This document shows, in pieces, positions 10,566 to 20,187 of a stretch of DNA of 21,975 nucleotides. The notes under the pieces are model-generated. The model saw only the letters and a program-made list of their open reading frames with translations, ran no database searches and had not been told where the DNA came from. Each line of letters starts with the position of its first letter. Within the stretch, counting starts at the first letter, position 1. Where the stretch lies: positions 1-21,975 of the forward strand of contig JAFARM010000411.1 of assembly GCA_019245455.1 (NCBI GenBank). The letters are read 5' to 3'. The DNA is from Sphingomonadaceae bacterium (GTDB taxonomy: Bacteria > Pseudomonadota > Alphaproteobacteria > Sphingomonadales > Sphingomonadaceae). The position numbers were made by a program, and so were the translations under genes.

Positions 10566-12209
10566 TCAGGACCCCGTCGGCACCGCCGCGCCCGGGTACG
10601 TCGTCGCCCAGCTGCCGCCGAGCGAGCGGATCAGCGCTACCGCCGTCGCCTGCTGCGTCACTTCGGCCTGGACCAGCGTCCGCCGCGCGGTGAGCGCCGT
10701 CGTCTGGTTGGTGACCACGGTGGTGAAGTCGACCTGGCCGGCGAGATACTGGTTCAGGACCAGCGCTTCGGTCTGATCGGCCGCCTGCGACGCGGCCTGG
10801 CGCAGCGTCGTCGTCACCGCCTCCTGCCGGGTACCGGCGAGCTGATCCTCGACATCCTGCAGTGCGGCGAGCACCGTCTGGCGATAGGTCGCGACCGTCT
10901 GGGCATAGGCCGCGCGGGCGGCGGCGACGCGGGCGCTCGTCAGCCCGCCGTTGAAGATCGTCTGCGCCAGCGACGCGCCGACCGACCACAGGAAGGCGCT
11001 GCCGGTGAACAGGTTGCTGATCGTCGTCGCCGACTGCCCGACCGATCCTGTCAGTGTCAGGTTGGGGAAATAGCCGGCGACCTCGACGCCGATGCCGGCG
11101 TTGGCGGCGGCGACGCGGCGCTCGGCCGCGGCAACGTCGGGGCGGCGCTGAAGGAGGGCGGCGGGCACGTCGAGCGGCACCGCCGGCACCACCGGCTGCC
11201 ACTTGACGGGCTGGATGACGAAGGTCGCCGGCGGCTGCCCGGCGAGGACGGCAACAGCGTGCTCGAGCACCGCCCGCTGGCGGACGAGCTCGGCCAAGTC
11301 GCCGCGGGTCGAGGCGACCTGCGTCTCGGCCTGCAAAATGTCGGTCCTCGCCGCGACGCCCGCGTTGTAGCGGTTGACGGTGATCTGCAGCGCCCGGTCG
11401 AACGATTTGCCCGTCGCCTCGACCAGCGCGATCTCGGCGTCGAGGGCGCGGACCTGGAGGAAGTCGGTGGCGAGTTCGCTCTGCGCCGACAGGCGGGCGT
11501 TGGCGAGGTCGGCGGCGCTGGCGGCGGCGTTGCCCTTGGCCTGCTCGACCGAACGGCGGACGCGGCCCCACAGGTCGGGTTCCCAGCTCGCGCCGCCGGT
11601 GATGCGGTAGCGCGCGCCGCCGCCCGCGGAGCCCAGCGTCGTGCTGCCACTGCCGGTCGAGGTGCCCCCCGTCGCCGTGCCGGTGCCGGTGCCGACGCCG
11701 CCGCCGCCGGCGGTGACGATCGTCCCCGCGCTGCCGCCGCCGCCCGACTTGGTCACCGACGGCGTCACCTGGAGGGTCGGGAAATAGCTGGCGCGGGCCT
11801 CGCGAACGAGCGCGCGCGCCTGGTCGTAAGCGGCGGCGGCAGCGAGCACGTTCTGGTTGTCGACGTTGATCCGGGCGCAGAGGTCATTGAGCACGGGGTC
11901 GCCGAACAGCGTCCACCACGCGCCCTTGTCGAGCGCGTCGCCCGGCGCGGCGGGGGTCCAGGTGACGCCCGCCGCCTCCTTGAACGCCGGCGGCGTGGCG
12001 GCCGACGGGCGGTGGTAATTCGGGCCGACGGTGCAGGCGGAGAGGGCGAGGGCGAGAGTTGCGACCTTCAGCTTGTCATCCCCGCGAAAGCGGGGACCCA
12101 TCTCCCGCCGTCCGATCGTGGCGACGGCGTGCGTCGCATCTGGACCAGGCTTGGGAGACGGGTCCCCGCTTTCGCGGGGATGACGACGAAAGGAAGGCGG
12201 CACCCTCAT
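10566..12209 (-). CDS. Outer-membrane efflux lipoprotein, OprM/NodT family
   Basis: The product is an outer-membrane factor with the lipobox LALSAC (C59 from the first ATG) followed by TVGPNYHRP, the usual NodT/OprM start, then two outer-membrane efflux repeats; ASWEPDLWGRVRR and YFPNLTLTGSVGQ are typical. It forms the trimeric channel for the pump encoded upstream. The first ATG at 12209 overlaps the mdtC stop (ATGA) and gives 547 residues, but the first 45 or so codons read straight through a family A palindrome. An ATG inside that repeat at 12101 gives 511 residues and a normal 22-residue lipoprotein signal, so it is the likelier functional start. A Gly/Ser/Thr-rich insert at residues 154-199 probably lies in a surface loop. 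Family certain; start uncertain. Confidence 0.93.
   Translation of the reverse strand: MRVPPSFRRHPRESGDPSPKPGPDATHAVATIGRREMGPRFRGDDKLKVATLALALSACTVGPNYHRPSAATPPAFKEAAGVTWTPAAPGDALDKGAWWTLFGDPVLNDLCARINVDNQNVLAAAAAYDQARALVREARASYFPTLQVTPSVTKSGGGGSAGTIVTAGGGGVGTGTGTATGGTSTGSGSTTLGSAGGGARYRITGGASWEPDLWGRVRRSVEQAKGNAAASAADLANARLSAQSELATDFLQVRALDAEIALVEATGKSFDRALQITVNRYNAGVAARTDILQAETQVASTRGDLAELVRQRAVLEHAVAVLAGQPPATFVIQPVKWQPVVPAVPLDVPAALLQRRPDVAAAERRVAAANAGIGVEVAGYFPNLTLTGSVGQSATTISNLFTGSAFLWSVGASLAQTIFNGGLTSARVAAARAAYAQTVATYRQTVLAALQDVEDQLAGTRQEAVTTTLRQAASQAADQTEALVLNQYLAGQVDFTTVVTNQTTALTARRTLVQAEVTQQATAVALIRSLGGSWATTYPGAAVPTGS
12075..12184. repeat. Family A palindromic repeat inside the 5' end of the channel gene
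   Basis: Arms 12075-12106 and 12153-12184 are near-perfect inverted copies of the family A arm with a 46-base loop. The element lies downstream of the overlapping start at 12209 and upstream of the lipoprotein signal. It is read in frame as RRHPRESGDPS on the way in and MGPRFRGDD on the way out, the products expected from this palindrome in one frame. Confidence 0.92.
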
Positions 12210-15200
12210 GCATACTCCGGGTTGAACTGGCTCGCGCGCCGTACCGCGCCCTTACGGCGGAAGCGGTCGAGCGCGAGGTAGACGACCGGCGTCGTCAGCA
12301 GCGTCAGCACCTGGCTGACCAAGAGCCCGCCGATGATGGCGATGCCGAGCGGGTGCCTGAGCTCCGCCCCTTCGCCCCAGCCGATCGCCAGCGGCACCGC
12401 GCCGAACACGGCGGCGAGCGTCGTCATGACGATCGGGCGGAAGCGGAGAAGCGAGGCGCGGGTGATCGCCTCGCGTGGGCTCAGTCCCTCCTCGCGCTCG
12501 GCGGCAAGCGCGAAGTCGATGATGAGAATGGCGTTCTTCTTGACGATGCCGATCAGCAGGACGACGCCGATCAGGGCGATGATCGAGAATTCGGTGCCCG
12601 TCGCCAGCAGGCCGATGACCGCGCCGACGCCGGCCGACGGCAGGGTCGACAGCACCGTAATCGGGTGGATCAGGCTTTCGTAGAGGATGCCAAGGACGAT
12701 GTAGATGGTGACGATCGCCGCCAGGATCAGCCACGGCGTCGACTTCAGCGAATCCTGGAACGCCTTGGCCGTGCCGGCGAAGCCGCCGTGGACGGTGGCG
12801 GGCGCGTTGACCTGCGCCAGCGCGTCGGCGAGCACCGGCACGGCGTCGGACAGCGACTTTCCGGGCGCGACGTTGAAGCTGATCGTCGCCGCCGGCGACC
12901 CCGCCTGGTGGTTGATCGACGCCGCCGTCGCGCGCGTGTCGTAACGGGCGAAGGCGGCGAGCGGGACCATGGTCGCTGGCGTCGCCGACAATGGGCTGCC
13001 CGACGCCTGGACATCGCCGTTGGTCGACGCCGCCGGCGCGGTCGCGTTCTGCGGGGTGGTCGCAGCCGCGCCGATGACCCCGCCGCCGGTCGTCGTCGCC
13101 CCCGCGCCGCCGCCCTTCAGCGCCGCCGCCGGGGCGTTCGCCGCGACGTAGATGGTGGCGAGCGCCTGCGGGTTCTGGCGGAACGGCGCGGCCGCCTCCA
13201 TGATCACCTTGTACTGGTTGAGGTCGGAATAGATCGTCGCCACGCCGCGCTGCCCGAAGGCGTCGTAGAGGATGTTGTCGACGTCGCGCGACGTGACGCC
13301 GAGCCGGGCGGCCGAATCGCGGTCGACGGTGACGAAGGTCTCGACCCCGTTCTGCTGCGTGTCGGCGTCGACGTCGGTCAGCACCGGCGACCGCTTGAGG
13401 ATCGCGACCATGCGGTCGGCATATTGCGGCAGCGTCACGGGGTCGTCGCCCGACAGCGTGTACTGGTAGTTGGCATTGCCCTGCCGGCCGCCGACGCGCA
13501 CGTCCTGCACCGGCGACAGGAACAGCTGCGCGCCGGTGACGCGCGCCAGCTTGGGCCGCAGCCGGCCGATGACGGTCATGCTGCCGACGCCGGGCCGCTG
13601 GCTCTTGGGGATAAGGGTCGCGAAGGCGAAGCCGCCGCCGCCGCCGCGGTTGCCGCCGCCGCCGGTGAAGCCGACGATGGTGGCGATGTCGGGATCGCTC
13701 TTCACGATCCGCGTCAGCTGCGCGAGCTTCGCCGACGACGCCTGGAACGACGCCCGCTGGTCAAGGCGCAGGCCGCCCGCAAGGCTGCCGGTGTCCTGGT
13801 CGGGGAAGAAGCCCTTGGGGATCGCCGCCCACAGATAGACGTTAATGCCGATCGTCGCGACGAGGATCAGCAGCACCAGCGCGACATTGTCGAGCGCCCA
13901 GTCGAGCGCGACTCCATAGCCGCGGATCGTCCGGTCGAACCCGCCCTCGATGGCGCGGGAGAAGCGGTTCGGCCGCCCCTCGTCCTTGCCCTTCAGCAGC
14001 AGCGCGGCGATCATCGGCGTGGTCGTCAGCGAGATGACGAGGCTGATCAGCACCGACGCCGACAGGGTGACGGCGAACTCGCGGAACAACCGCCCGACGA
14101 TGCCGCCCATGAACAGGAGCGGGATGAACACGGCGACGAGGCTGATCGAGATCGAGACGACGGTGAACCCCACCTCGCGGGCACCACGGAGCGCCGCATC
14201 CATCGGCGTCATCCCGTCCTCGACGTGGCGGACGATGTTTTCCAGCACGACGATCGCGTCGTCAACGACGAAGCCGGTGGCGACCGTCAGCGCCATCAGC
14301 GACAGGTTGTTCAAGGAAAAGCCGGCGAGATACATGACGCCGAGCGTGCCCAGCAGCGAGACGACGACGGCGACCGCCGGCACCACCGTCGCCCGCCACG
14401 AGCGCAGGAAGATGGACACGACGATGACCACCAGGATCGTCGCGATCGCCAGCGTGATCTCGACATCGCGGAGCGACGCGCGGATCGTCGTCGTGCGGTC
14501 GCTCGCCACCGTCAGCTCGATGTCGGCGGGCAGCCCCGCACGGAGCGCCGGGAGCTGGGCCTTGACCGCCTCGACCGCGGCGATGATGTTCGCGCCGGGC
14601 TGGCGGCTGATGACGGCGACGACCGCCGGGCGGCCGTTGAACAGGCCGACGGTGCGCGCGTCCTCCGGCCCGTCGGTCACCTCGGCGATGTCGCTCAGCC
14701 GAACCGCCGCTCCGTTCCGGTAGGCGATGATCAGCGGCCGATAGTCGGCGGCCGAGCGCCGCGTCGCGCTGGTCGTGATCTGGAACGATTCGCCGCCGGC
14801 ATGGACCGTCCCCTTCGGCCGGTTGGGGTTGGTTGCGGCCAGCGCCGCGCGCACGTCCTCAAGGCTGATGCCCAGCCGCGACAGGGCAAGCGGGTTGACG
14901 TCGACGCGCACGGCGGGGAGCGCGCCGCCGCCGATCTGCACCTCGCCGACGCCGGGCAGCTGCGACAGGTTCTGCTGCACGACATTCGACGCCGCGTCGA
15001 AGATCTGGAACGCGCTCCGCGTCTTGCTGGTCAGCGCCAGGATCATGATCGGCGCGTCGGCGGCGTTGATCTTGCGGTACGTCGGGTTCGACCGCAGCGT
15101 CGCCGGCAGGTCGACCCGCGCCGCCGCGATCGCCGCCTGCACGTCGCGCGCCGCGCCGTTGATGTCGCGACCGAGGTTGAACTGCAGCGTGATCCGCGCC

Positions 15201-15463
15201 GACCCCGTCGACGATTGGCTGGTCATCTCGGACACGTCGGCAATGGTGCCCAAGCGCCGCTCGAGCGGGGTCGCAACGCTGGACGCCATGGTCGCCGGCG
15301 ACGCGCCCGCGAGGCTGGCGTTGATGGCGATGGTCGGGAAGTCGACCTCGGGCAGCGGCGACACGGGCAGGACGAAGAAGGCGGCGATGCCCGACAGCGC
15401 GACGCCGATCGTCAAGAGGATCGTCGCGATCGGCCGGCGGATGAACGGCGACGACAGGCTCAC
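12206..15463 (-). CDS. mdtC: RND multidrug efflux permease, MdtC-like
   Basis: The protein has 1085 residues from the GTG at 15463, which overlaps the stop of the upstream permease by four bases (GTGA). It opens with [13 protein letters not shown], the first RND helix. The proton-relay aspartates in TM4 are D401-D402 ([14 protein letters not shown], with LEN as in MdtC), and the TM10 lysine is in [14 protein letters not shown]. It follows MdtC closely around [17 protein letters not shown] and REVGFTVVS segments. It should form a heterotrimer with the MdtB-like protein. It is longer than E. coli MdtC (1025) because of two periplasmic inserts: a Gly-run near residues 598-613 and an Ala/Gly/Thr-rich stretch at about 775-831. 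The open frame extends upstream to 15979 but that part overlaps mdtB. Confidence 0.95.
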
Positions 15464-18400
15464 GCGGCCGGCACCGGGCTGGCGATGGGGTGACGCGGCT
15501 TCGCCAGCCGGTCGAAGGCGAGATAGATGACCGGCGTCGTGAACAGCGTCAGCATCTGGCTGACGACCAGCCCGCCGAAGATGGCGAGGCCGAGCGGCCG
15601 CCGCAGTTCCGACCCCTCGCCCCAGCCGATCATCAGCGGCACCGCGGCGAACAGCGCGGCCAAGGTAGTCATCATGATCGGGCGGAAACGCAGCAGCGCC
15701 GCCTGGTGGATCGCGTCGCGCGGGGCCATGCCCTCCTCGCGCTCGGCGGCGAGGGCGAAGTCGATCATCATGATCGCGTTCTTCTTGACGATGCCGATCA
15801 GCAGCACGATGCCGATGATGCCGATGACGCCGAGGTCGTTGCCGGTGACGATCAGCATGAGGAGCGCGCCGATGCCCGCCGACGGCAGGGTCGACAGAAT
15901 CGTCAGCGGATGGATGTAGCTTTCGTAGAGCACGCCGAGCACGATGTAGACCGTGACCACCGCCGCCAGGATCAGCCACAGCTGGTTCGACAGGCTGCGC
16001 GTATAGGCGTCCGACGCGCCGAGGAAGGTCAGCCCGACCGTGTTCGGCAGGTGGACCGCCGCGGCCGCATCCTTCATCGCCTGCACCGCACCGCCGAGGC
16101 TGACGCCCGGCGCGGGGTCGAAGCCGATGGTCGAGGCCGGGTACTGCGCGACGTGCGTCACGGCGAGCGGCACGCGCTTGGGCACGATGCGGGCGATGGC
16201 GGCAAGCGGCACCGGCTTCCCCGTCGACGACTGCAGCTGCAGCTGACCGAGGCCCTGCAACCCGGCGAGCTCGTTCGGCATCGCCTCCAGGATGACGCGG
16301 TACTGGTTAGATTGGGTGAAGATGGTCGAGATGATCCGCTGCCCGAAGGCATTGTACAGCGCGTCGTCGACGGCGGACGCGGTGATCCCCAGGCGGGCGG
16401 CGGTGTCGCGGTCGATGTCGACGAAGGCCGACAGCCCGTCCTGCTGGACGTCGCTGACGACCGCGCCGAGCTTGGCGCTGGTCCGCATCTCGGCGGCCAG
16501 CTTCTGCGACCAGGTGGCGACGTCGGCGGTCGTCGCGCCGGTCAGGCTGGCGCGATAGGTCGTCGGCCCGGTCTCGGCGTCGATCGACAGGTCCTGCACC
16601 GGCTGGAACCACACCGTCACCCCGGCGACGCCGCGGGCGCGGTCCTGCAGGCGGGCGATGACCGTGTCGAGGCTGCCGTCGCGCTCGCCCTTGGGGTGCA
16701 GGTTGATGAGCAGCCGGCCGCTGTTCTGCGTCGGGTTGACCCCATCCACGCCGAGGTACGACGACAGGCTGGCGACCGCCGGGTCCTGCGCCAGCGCGCG
16801 GGCGACGTCGTTCTGCAAGCCCGCGGCGCGGTCATAGGCGACCGACTGGGCGGTACGGACGACCGCCTGCACCTGCCCCGTGTCCTGCACCGGGAACAGC
16901 CCCTTGGGGATGGCGATGTAGAGCACCGCCGCCAGCACCACCGAGGCGAGGAACACCGCCAGCGTCAGCGCACTGTGGTCGAGCACCCAGGTCAGCGCCT
17001 TGTCGTAGCGGCCGTTGACCCGGTCGAAGACGCGCTGCGTCGCGCGGGCGAAGCGCGAGTCGCTGCCGTGGCTCTTCAGCATCCGCGCGCTCATCATCGG
17101 CACCAGCGTCAGGGCGACAATGGCCGAGATGACGATGGTGACGGCCAGCGCCACGGCGAACTCGCGAAACAGCCGCCCGACGACGTCGCCCATGAACAGC
17201 AGCGGGATGAGGACGGCGATCAGCGATACCGTCAGGCTGATGATGGTGAATCCGATCTCCGCCGCGCCGCGGACGGCGGCGGCATAGGGCTTCATCCCCT
17301 CCTCGATGTGGCGGCTGATGTTCTCGATGACAACGATGGCGTCGTCGACGACGAAGCCGGTGGCGATCGTCAGGCTCATCAGCGTCAGGTTGTTGAGGCT
17401 GTAGCCGAGCAGGTACATGACGCCGCAGGTGCCGATCAGCGAGATCGGCATGGCGATCGAGGCGACGATCGTCGCCGGGAACGAGCCGAGGAAGGCGAAG
17501 ATCACCAGCACGACGAGGCCAACGGCGAAGACCAGCTCGAACTCGACGTCGCTGACCGACGCACGGATGCCGGTGGTGCGGTCGGCCAGCGTCCTGACCG
17601 TGATGTCGGGCGGGATCGCCGCGCGAAGGTCGGGCAGGACGGCGTTGATCGCGTCGACCGTCTTGATGACGTTGGCCCCCGGCTGGCGGCGGACGTCGAC
17701 CACGATCGCCGGCTCGGTGCCGACGAAGGCACCGAGCTTGGTGTTCTCCGCGCCGTCGGCGACGGTCGCGACGTCCCTCAGGAACACCGGCGCGCCGTTC
17801 CGGTAGGCGACGATCAGGTTGCGGTACTCGTCCGCCGTCGACAGCTGGTCGTTGGCGTCGATGGTGAAGGCCTCCGCCGCGCCGTCAAAGCTGCCCTTCG
17901 CGCCGTTTGCGTTGGCCGCGGCGATGGCGCTCCTGAGCGTGTCGAAGGCGATGCCGAAACTCGCCAGCAGCTGCGTGTTCGCCTGGATGCGGACCGCCGG
18001 CCGCGCCCCGCCCGACAGCGACACCTGGCCGACGCCGCCGACCTGGGCGATCTTGGCGGCGAGCTGGCTATCGACGATGTTCTGCACCTCCGTCAGCGGC
18101 CGCGTCCGCGAGGTGACCGCGAGCGTCAGCACCGGCGCGTCGGCGGGATTGACCTTGGCATAGACCGGCGGCGCGGGCAGGTCGGCGGGGAGCAGGCTGG
18201 TCGCGGCGTTGATCGCCGCCTGCACCTCCTGCTCGGCGACGTCCAGAGGAAGGCCGAGGTCGAACTGCAGCGTCTCGACCGACGATCCCGCGCTGCTGAC
18301 CGACGACAGGCGCTTCAGCCCCTCCATCTGGCCGAACTGGCGCTCGAGCGGCGCGGTCACGGTCGCCGCCATCACGTCGGGCGACGCGCCGGGATAGCCG

Positions 18401-18693
18401 GTCGTCACCTGGATCGTCGGGAAGTCGACCTGGGGCAGGGCGGCGAGCGGCAGCAGCTTGAAGCCGACCAGCCCCGCCAGCACGATGGCGATCATCAGGA
18501 GCGAGGTCGCCACCGGCCGGGCGATGAACGGCCGCGACGGGCTGGCGCGGCCATCCCCGCCCGCCGGGTCGTTTGCCGCGCCGTCGGGCAGCGCGCGCGG
18601 ATCGCCGCACTGCTCCCCCTCCCCTTCAGGGGAGGGGGCAGGGGGGTGGGGCGGTCGGTCCTTACGCCCGCCGCGCGGGTCGGCGTCAGCCAC
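15460..18693 (-). CDS. mdtB: RND multidrug efflux permease, MdtB-like, with repeat-encoded N-terminal extension
   Basis: The 1077-residue permease matches MdtB in TM4 and around it ([20 protein letters not shown], relay aspartates D450-D451) and has [14 protein letters not shown] in TM10. The first RND helix motif [14 protein letters not shown] begins only at residue 52; aligned with the partner permease, the protein has exactly 49 extra residues in front. No ATG, GTG or TTG lies in frame between the GTG at 18693 and that motif, so the GTG, overlapping the adaptor stop by eight bases, is the best start. Part of the extension ([14 protein letters not shown]) is a translated palindromic repeat. 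In E. coli, MdtB and MdtC together export bile salts and novobiocin; substrates here are unknown. Confidence 0.95.
18612..18660. repeat. Family B palindromic repeat within the mdtB N-terminal codons
   Basis: A perfect ten-base stem (CCCCCTCCCC at 18615-18624, GGGGAGGGGG at 18629-18638) with loop TTCA, followed by a G-rich tail up to GGGGCGGTCGG. Stem and tail match the copies at 20098-20128 and 20164-20185. On the minus strand it is read in frame in mdtB as [14 protein letters not shown]. Confidence 0.88.
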
Positions 18694-20097: not shown

Positions 20098-20187
20098 AGG
20101 GGAGGGGGTCGGGGGATGGGGCAGTCGGAACGGTTGAGGCCACCTCGACTTCCCCGCCCCCGACCCCTCCCCTGAAGGGGAGGGGAG
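20098..20187. repeat. Family B palindromic repeat pair between aldehyde oxidase gene and mdtA
   Basis: Two inverted copies face each other: AGGGGAGGGGGTCGGGGGAT from 20098 and its near reverse complement at about 20151-20173. A nested perfect nine-base hairpin (CCCCTCCCC, loop TGAA, GGGGAGGGG) spans 20164-20185, three bases from the TAG of the oxidase gene. It is a plausible terminator for that gene. The rest of the gap (19985-20097) holds a further CCTCCCCCTCCC stretch; I could not call a promoter for mdtA in it. Confidence 0.85.

What the first reader, a model, noticed from the sequence alone, without database searches (positions are those of the whole stretch)
12075..12209. A dispersed palindrome supplies the N-terminal codons, and perhaps the start codon, of the efflux channel
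The channel's frame runs from an ATGA overlap with mdtC (12209) through the whole 110-bp family A palindrome into the lipoprotein signal. The inner ATG at 12101, inside the right-hand part of the repeat as transcribed, gives MGPRFRGDDKLKVATLALALSAC (split here: repeat-derived MGPRFRGDD, then the native signal). That is a normal 22-residue lipoprotein signal whose basic n-region comes from the repeat. No other start lies before the lipobox, so the insertion seems to have replaced the original start.
Basis: partly seen in the sequence, partly recalled or inferred. Interest (0 to 1): 0.72.

Follow-up and report, generated by a model that had tools for sequence, protein, structure and literature searches.

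The report
Repeat DNA inside a signal peptide
A common bacterial hairpin repeat has landed just after the start codon of an efflux-channel gene and is open in frame as part of the throw-away signal peptide, while the gene's original start codon appears to have been kept.

Summary
Window 12075-12184 is a 110-bp near-perfect palindrome, one of many copies in this Polymorphobacter-like genome. The channel ORF is open from the ATGA overlap with mdtC (12209) through the repeat into a lipoprotein signal, and the inner ATG (12101) is as described. The repeat is best filed as a head-to-head dimer of CGTC-tagged REPs (Di Nocera 2013). That the insertion replaced the original start is not supported. Two relatives without the repeat (G001, G005) start at the same ATGA with the same GGAG five bases upstream. 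A third (G002) carries a different REP at the same 25-nt offset, again in frame. A homologue with a REP-like insert (P0009) has no internal Met. The inner ATG is buried in the hairpin (49 against 13 kcal/mol to open). About half of the stop-REP distances sampled here are 10-29 nt, so a gene whose start overlaps that stop receives the REP in its first codons. The same layout was found in ccmH, a second channel, an amidohydrolase and a MetH part. Best reading: native start used, REP translated, and in exported proteins removed with the signal peptide. Start use and cleavage are inferred, not measured.

The parts
12075..12184 (.). 110-bp CGTC-type REP head-to-head dimer (family A palindrome)
   Evidence: outer TGTC and CGTC tags, GAAA loops, inner tails CCA on one arm and CCG on the other; one of 107 dimers in the G000 sample
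10566..12209 (-). Outer membrane efflux channel lipoprotein ORF (547 aa from ATG 12209), PF02321
12207..12209 (-). Native start codon ATG, overlapping mdtC's TGA (ATGA); GGAG at 12215-12218, five bases upstream
   Evidence: start at the same place in G001, G005 and G002; GGAG shared by G001 and G005, not G002
12185..12205 (-). The 21 nt between mdtC's stop and the REP
   Evidence: stop distance 21
12099..12101 (-). Inner ATG carried by the REP (MGPRFRGDD)
   Evidence: buried in the predicted hairpin
12033..12074 (-). Native part of the signal peptide, KLKVATLALALSA, and the lipobox Cys
   Evidence: lines up with ILPITLTATLLASC of G001
12206..15508 (-). mdtC-type RND pump gene (part translated); its stop overlaps the channel's start
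   Evidence: name from the finding and recall, no family search was run on it

Best explanation
A CGTC-type REP dimer was placed 21 nt behind the stop codon of mdtC, a favoured distance for this repeat in this genome. The channel gene starts inside that stop codon (ATGA), so the REP fell into codon 9 of the channel, between the native n-region and the hydrophobic core of the lipoprotein signal. It is stop-free in the frame HPRESGDP..MGPRFRGDD and its length keeps the frame, so the gene survived. Translation still starts at the native, SD-preceded and mdtC-coupled ATG at 12209 and reads through the REP. Signal peptidase II would then remove the 58-residue precursor segment, leaving the mature channel unchanged. 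Shown: sequence, frame, start position in relatives, placement, recurrence. Inferred: start use, coupling, export and cleavage.
For: Repeat-free relatives G001 and G005 have the start at the same ATGA with GGAG-5 nt. G002 has a different 74-bp REP at the same 25-nt offset, in frame. Database homologues P0005 (25 nt), P0006 (19 nt) and P0009 (25 nt) read a native-like MK/MT start, then REP-coded residues, then the core (offsets worked out from protein). P0009 has no internal Met (its DNA was not seen, so an inner GTG or TTG is not excluded). Opening the -15..+12 region costs 13.3 kcal/mol at 12209 and 49.2 at 12101; the native starts in G001, G005 and G002 cost 9.4, 9.2 and 12.9. Stop-to-REP distance is 10-29 nt in 60 of 123 pairs (pairs up to 300 nt apart) in the G000 sample and 18 of 52 in G005. 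Nine REP copies at five junctions (OMF1 G000, G002; OMF2 G000, G002; ccmH G000; amidohydrolase G000, G002, G005; MetH part G000) each have an ATG or GTG overlapping the upstream stop and in frame through the REP. The 14 repeat-free copies whose junction could be read each have an in-frame start at or beside the same stop.
Against: No protein or ribosome data exist here. A 45-residue stretch before the core is long for a signal peptide (general knowledge). G002 has a further ATG after its REP, and the database protein P0007, indistinguishable from G002 in the tree, is recorded from that later start. The inner Met is kept in five of the six REP-bearing sequences, window included, even in degenerate P0026. 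P0014, P0019 and P0021 lack a native-like start and could hide out-of-frame repeats. Genes open through a REP are not in excess: 17 of 49 in G000 and 7 of 24 in G005, against 323 of 636 and 131 of 300 stop-free frames over the dimers.
Confidence: 0.75

Rival explanations
1. The REP's own ATG at 12101 is the working start; the insertion displaced the native start and the upstream codons are untranslated leader.
For: It yields a normal 22-residue lipoprotein signal. The inner Met is kept in five of six REP-bearing sequences. Di Nocera 2013 says that many N-terminal REPs may be extragenic because translation may start downstream. REP-crossing frames are not in excess genome-wide.
Against: The ATG lies in a 32-bp stem (49.2 kcal/mol to open) with GGGAG directly abutting it. 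P0009 lacks an inner Met. None of the 49 downstream genes in the G000 sample needs an inner start alone; of 24 in G005 one weak call (3147733) does. The native start is intact and in frame.
Confidence: 0.15
2. Two starts: protein from 12209 and also some reinitiation at 12101 after a ribosome has opened the hairpin; both forms give the same mature lipoprotein. (Overlaps with the best explanation, so the odds do not add to one.)
For: Both starts are in frame upstream of the lipobox; a ribosome coming from mdtC or 12209 would open the stem (inference); G002 has a third start after its REP.
Against: Nothing here measures it, and one start is enough to explain the data.
Confidence: 0.25
3. The REP is a regulatory hairpin kept by selection to tune channel against pump levels.
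For: Strong hairpin in an operon near the stop; REPs at the same junction in several lineages.
Against: Absent from P0003 and P0004, which group with the window's protein in the tree; the same repeat sits behind many unrelated genes. Neutral insertion explains the pattern.
Confidence: 0.15

Closest known systems
CGTC-tagged REPs, family CGTC-1 type, head-to-head dimers (Di Nocera, De Gregorio, Rocco 2013, PMC3733652: abstract, sections 6, 14, 15 and passages seen)
   Same: C/TGTC tag, 4-nt loop, CCA tail, tags outside (HH), mostly between co-directional or convergent genes and close behind stops, common in alphaproteobacteria, no dedicated transposase, some copies inside ORFs including N-termini
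   Different: The first of the 8 stem pairs is usually A-C here. The paper takes many N-terminal REPs as probably untranslated; here comparison places the native start upstream of the REP
Rickettsia palindromic elements (RPE; Ogata 2000 and 2002 not read, known from passages in PMC10969869 and PMC3733652 and from recall)
   Same: Palindromes in frame in many unrelated genes. PMC3733652 equates RPE-4 and RPE-6 with CGTC REPs
   Different: Another genus. The focal copy sits in a segment expected to be cleaved off
Different REPs at about the same site of recB in X. campestris and X. oryzae (PMC3733652 section 15)
   Same: Different REPs at one position of orthologous genes
   Different: No link to a stop-start overlap or signal peptide is stated there

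Membership tests
CGTC-tagged REP | Terminal CGTC (or TGTC/CCTC) tag | tested here: met
   158 of 162 units of 81 dimers have TGTC (81) or CGTC (77)
CGTC-tagged REP | Family 1: 8-bp stem with paired A-T in first and second place, 4-nt loop | tested here: inconclusive
   With an 8-4-8 layout imposed by offset, 140 of 162 units pair 7 of 8 positions, 3 pair all 8, 19 fewer; inspection shows the first pair is usually A-C
CGTC-tagged REP | Unpaired CCA tail | tested here: met
   150 of 162 units
CGTC-tagged REP | Predominantly head-to-head dimers (tags outside) | tested here: met
   107 of 121 elements in the G000 sample, 50 of 60 in G005; definition of HH. The sample was drawn by a single-arm pattern
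CGTC-tagged REP | Mostly between co-directional or convergent genes, close behind stops | tested here: met
   45 co-directional, 21 convergent, 4 divergent, 9 overlapping genes, 2 at stretch ends, of 81; 60 of 123 stop-REP distances are 10-29 nt
CGTC-tagged REP | No dedicated tyrosine transposase (RAYT) | tested here: met
   PF01797: 0 matches in the own genome (95.2% complete); rings in 5 of 14 control genomes. Other genomes of the genus were not searched
Rickettsia palindromic element | Palindrome in frame inside genes of unrelated function | tested here: met
   In-frame copies in MetH, CoaBC, DnaX and LigD (two) ORFs
Rickettsia palindromic element | Sequence relationship to a named RPE family | not tested
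   No RPE sequences were compared
REP inside a translated signal peptide | Codons upstream of the repeat are translated | not testable with these tools
   Needs proteomics or ribosome profiling

The most novel reading that the evidence does not exclude
Because REPs settle about 20 nt behind stops, genes that start inside an upstream stop repeatedly receive REP codons, and signal peptides are the haven that tolerates them. In the frame RR(x)WVPAFAGMT the repeat may even serve as a working part of the signal, giving basic residues and the start of the hydrophobic core (ccmH, second channel, amidohydrolase), so a selfish repeat has become a recurrent source of export signals.
Probability: 0.3. 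Interest if true: 0.6.

Novelty: new member of a known kind. Interest (0 to 1): 0.4.

Why it matters
It suggests a simple rule (repeat placed behind a stop, overlapping downstream start) for how palindromic repeats come to lie in translated N-termini. It bears on the published doubt whether N-terminal REPs are coding. It also warns that recorded starts in REP-rich alphaproteobacteria can be uncertain: P0007 is recorded from a start after the REP.

Tried and rejected
Rejected: replacement of the original start (native start present). No support: a Y1 (RAYT-type) transposase in the own genome (0 matches); a known Rfam RNA at 11950-12300 (0 at gathering score); a genome-wide excess of REP-crossing frames (17 of 49 and 7 of 24 genes open, against 51% and 44% stop-free frames).

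Literature: searches returned no paper; six and four, from which PMC10969869 (passages) and PMC3733652 were used; one search returned PMC4496055, which reports palindromic repeats within the coding regions of PA2077 and PA2078 of P. aeruginosa (passages; none places them in a signal peptide); one search returned PMC12350097 (listing only). PMC186582 is not held.

Rows dropped: two INTERNAL rows (G000 C116:1710 and G005 2034160) look like false repeat matches and were not used. In one search the G000 amidohydrolase was mis-indexed; it was read correctly. Orthologues that gave no junction: ccmH in G002 and G004 (no match), amidohydrolase in G003 (cut off), MetH part in G003 (match begins late) and G004 (no match).

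Limits of the counts: the G000 sample is 79 stretches (309 kb of 2.65 Mb) around most of the 100 listed of 246 places (C248 and C263 were not fetched) plus 20 stretches. The G005 sample is 40 stretches around part of the listed places (115 arms in all). Genes were called by a home-made codon-usage score, not by a gene finder; the arm pattern is slightly wider than that.

Full report
WHAT IS THERE. On the minus strand the RND pump gene mdtC ends in ATGA, and the ATG (12209) opens the frame of an outer membrane efflux channel (PF02321). After 25 nt comes a 110-bp palindrome (12184-12075), then KLKVATLALALSA and the lipobox Cys. The whole frame is open. In-frame starts upstream of the repeat are ATG 12209 and GTG 12203; none lies between the inner ATG and the lipobox.

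WHAT THE REPEAT IS. A 25-nt arm pattern has 122 + 124 places in the own genome and none for the reversed control; a second variant has 48 + 43 (the two sets overlap in part). In 81 dimers, 158 of 162 units carry the TGTC or CGTC tag and 150 a CCA tail. Tags face outwards. This matches the CGTC-type REP head-to-head dimers of Di Nocera and colleagues (PMC3733652; abstract and sections 6, 14 and 15 read; definition of HH), apart from a usual A-C first stem pair. That paper already reports REPs inside ORFs and at N-termini, and says that many of the latter may be extragenic. [quoted passage not shown]

WHERE THE NATIVE START IS. Of six genomes of the genus held, four have this channel at 72% identity or more. 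G001 and G005 lack the repeat and have MKRILPITLTATLLASC and MKRVLPIALTAALLASC from the ATGA. The GGAG five bases upstream is shared by the window, G001 and G005 but not G002. G002, 82% identical, has a different 74-bp REP at the same 25-nt offset, in frame. Of 4389 database homologues scored, 120 were listed and I read the N-termini of 37. P0005, P0006 and P0009 show a native-like start followed by REP-coded residues; P0026 shows a degenerate version and P0012 a different G-rich repeat-like insert. The REP nature of these rows is inferred from protein only. P0009 has no internal Met. In a tree of 35 rows the REP-bearing rows are interspersed with repeat-free ones, and P0003 and P0004, which group with the window's protein (89/61 and 99/96), lack it. 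So there were repeated gains at one place, or repeated losses; the data do not decide.

WHY THE SAME PLACE. In the G000 sample the distance from an upstream stop to a dimer (pairs up to 300 nt) is 10-29 nt in 60 of 123 (under 10: 2; 30-49: 12; 50-99: 14; the other 35 beyond). In G005 it is 18 of 52 (under 10: 3; 30-49: 7; 50-99: 15), a weaker peak. The focal value is 21. Closeness to the 3' end of the upstream ORF is also reported in PMC3733652. When the downstream gene starts inside that stop, a REP at this distance must fall in its first codons and, if that start is needed, can persist only in frame.

RECURRENCE. In one search, 73 downstream genes next to REPs were examined (49 in G000, 24 in G005): 24 open through the REP, 7 open only from inside it, 42 closed. 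All of the 7 and 42 have a start codon after the REP. Seven of the 24 had none in the stretch scanned after the REP: five of these have an upstream start (window, C54, C106, and G005 2035753 and 1488184), one has an ATG just past the cut (C165:7697), and one weak call has only an inner start (G005 3147733). Eight of the 24 have a start overlapping the upstream stop by 4 nt. Against my reading, REP-crossing frames are not in excess: 17 of 49 and 7 of 24 genes, while 323 of 636 and 131 of 300 frames over the dimers are stop-free.

ORTHOLOGUES. Second channel: REP in G000 (GTGA, and an ATG 9 nt later) and G002 (ATGA); none in G001, G003, G004, G005. ccmH: REP in G000 (GTGA); none in G001, G003, G005 (ATGA). 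Amidohydrolase: REP in G000, G002 and G005 at 26, 29 and 35 nt after GTG; none in G001 and G004. MetH part: REP in G000; none in G001, G002, G005. With the two at the focal junction, nine REP copies each have an upstream start in frame; the 14 repeat-free copies each have an in-frame start at or beside the same stop. Six of the nine were selected for being in frame; the three in G002 were not. The different offsets in the amidohydrolase point to separate insertions.

INSIDE GENES. Copies also lie in frame within MetH (apparently inside PF02965), CoaBC (between PF02441 and PF04127), DnaX, and twice in LigD between domains. G005 has one in a LigD-like ORF. Such insertions resemble Rickettsia palindromic elements (passages of PMC10969869).

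WHICH START. Freeing the -15..+12 region costs 13.3 kcal/mol at 12209 and 49.2 at 12101. The inner ATG has GGGAG directly abutting. P0009 does without an inner Met. I therefore hold the native start as the main one (0.75) and leave room for inner initiation. That the extension is cleaved by signal peptidase II follows from the lipobox and general knowledge of lipoproteins; it was not tested.

VERDICT. A real and well-seen feature with a mistaken last step. The element and its coding habit are known; the stop-anchored route into signal peptides is the part that looks new to me. Seven literature searches listed nothing whose title or passages I saw describe it; supplementary files were not searched and most subscription papers are not in that library.

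Noticed in passing
window 18616-18649 and 20152-20185: Inverted pair of a second G/C-rich repeat (CCCCTCCCC..GGGGAGGGG). The first lies in the open N-terminal frame of the mdtB-type gene just after the mdtA-type stop (18686-18688); the true mdtB start was not settled.
   Followed up: partly
protein P0012: A homologue of the channel carries a different G-rich repeat-like insert (SPRGGGACSFPPGGGGG) in the same part of the signal peptide.
   Followed up: no
G000:C208:377 and 1490; G005:C1:1494959: LigD-like ORFs with in-frame REPs: two in G000 between domains and one in G005.
   Followed up: partly
G000:C25:10738: REP in frame apparently inside the MetH activation domain (PF02965), not merely in a linker between domains.
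   Followed up: partly
L238, L240 and G000:C111:2408: Signal peptide of one amidohydrolase hit by REPs at three different offsets in three species; in G000 by a dimer plus a single unit.
   Followed up: partly
G000:C25:3765-3991: Two REP dimers in tandem in the open N-terminal frame of an RlpA-like ORF (PF03330 and SPOR); start not settled.
   Followed up: no
REP flanks: REP dimers often have a pyrimidine-rich left and purine-rich right flank with some complementarity, as if the element had a degenerate outer arm; by eye only.
   Followed up: no
genus genomes: REP arm counts differ sharply within the genus: 212 in G000, 115, 110 and 73 in G005, G001 and G002, but 5 and 4 in G003 and G004 (71% and 76% complete).
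   Followed up: no
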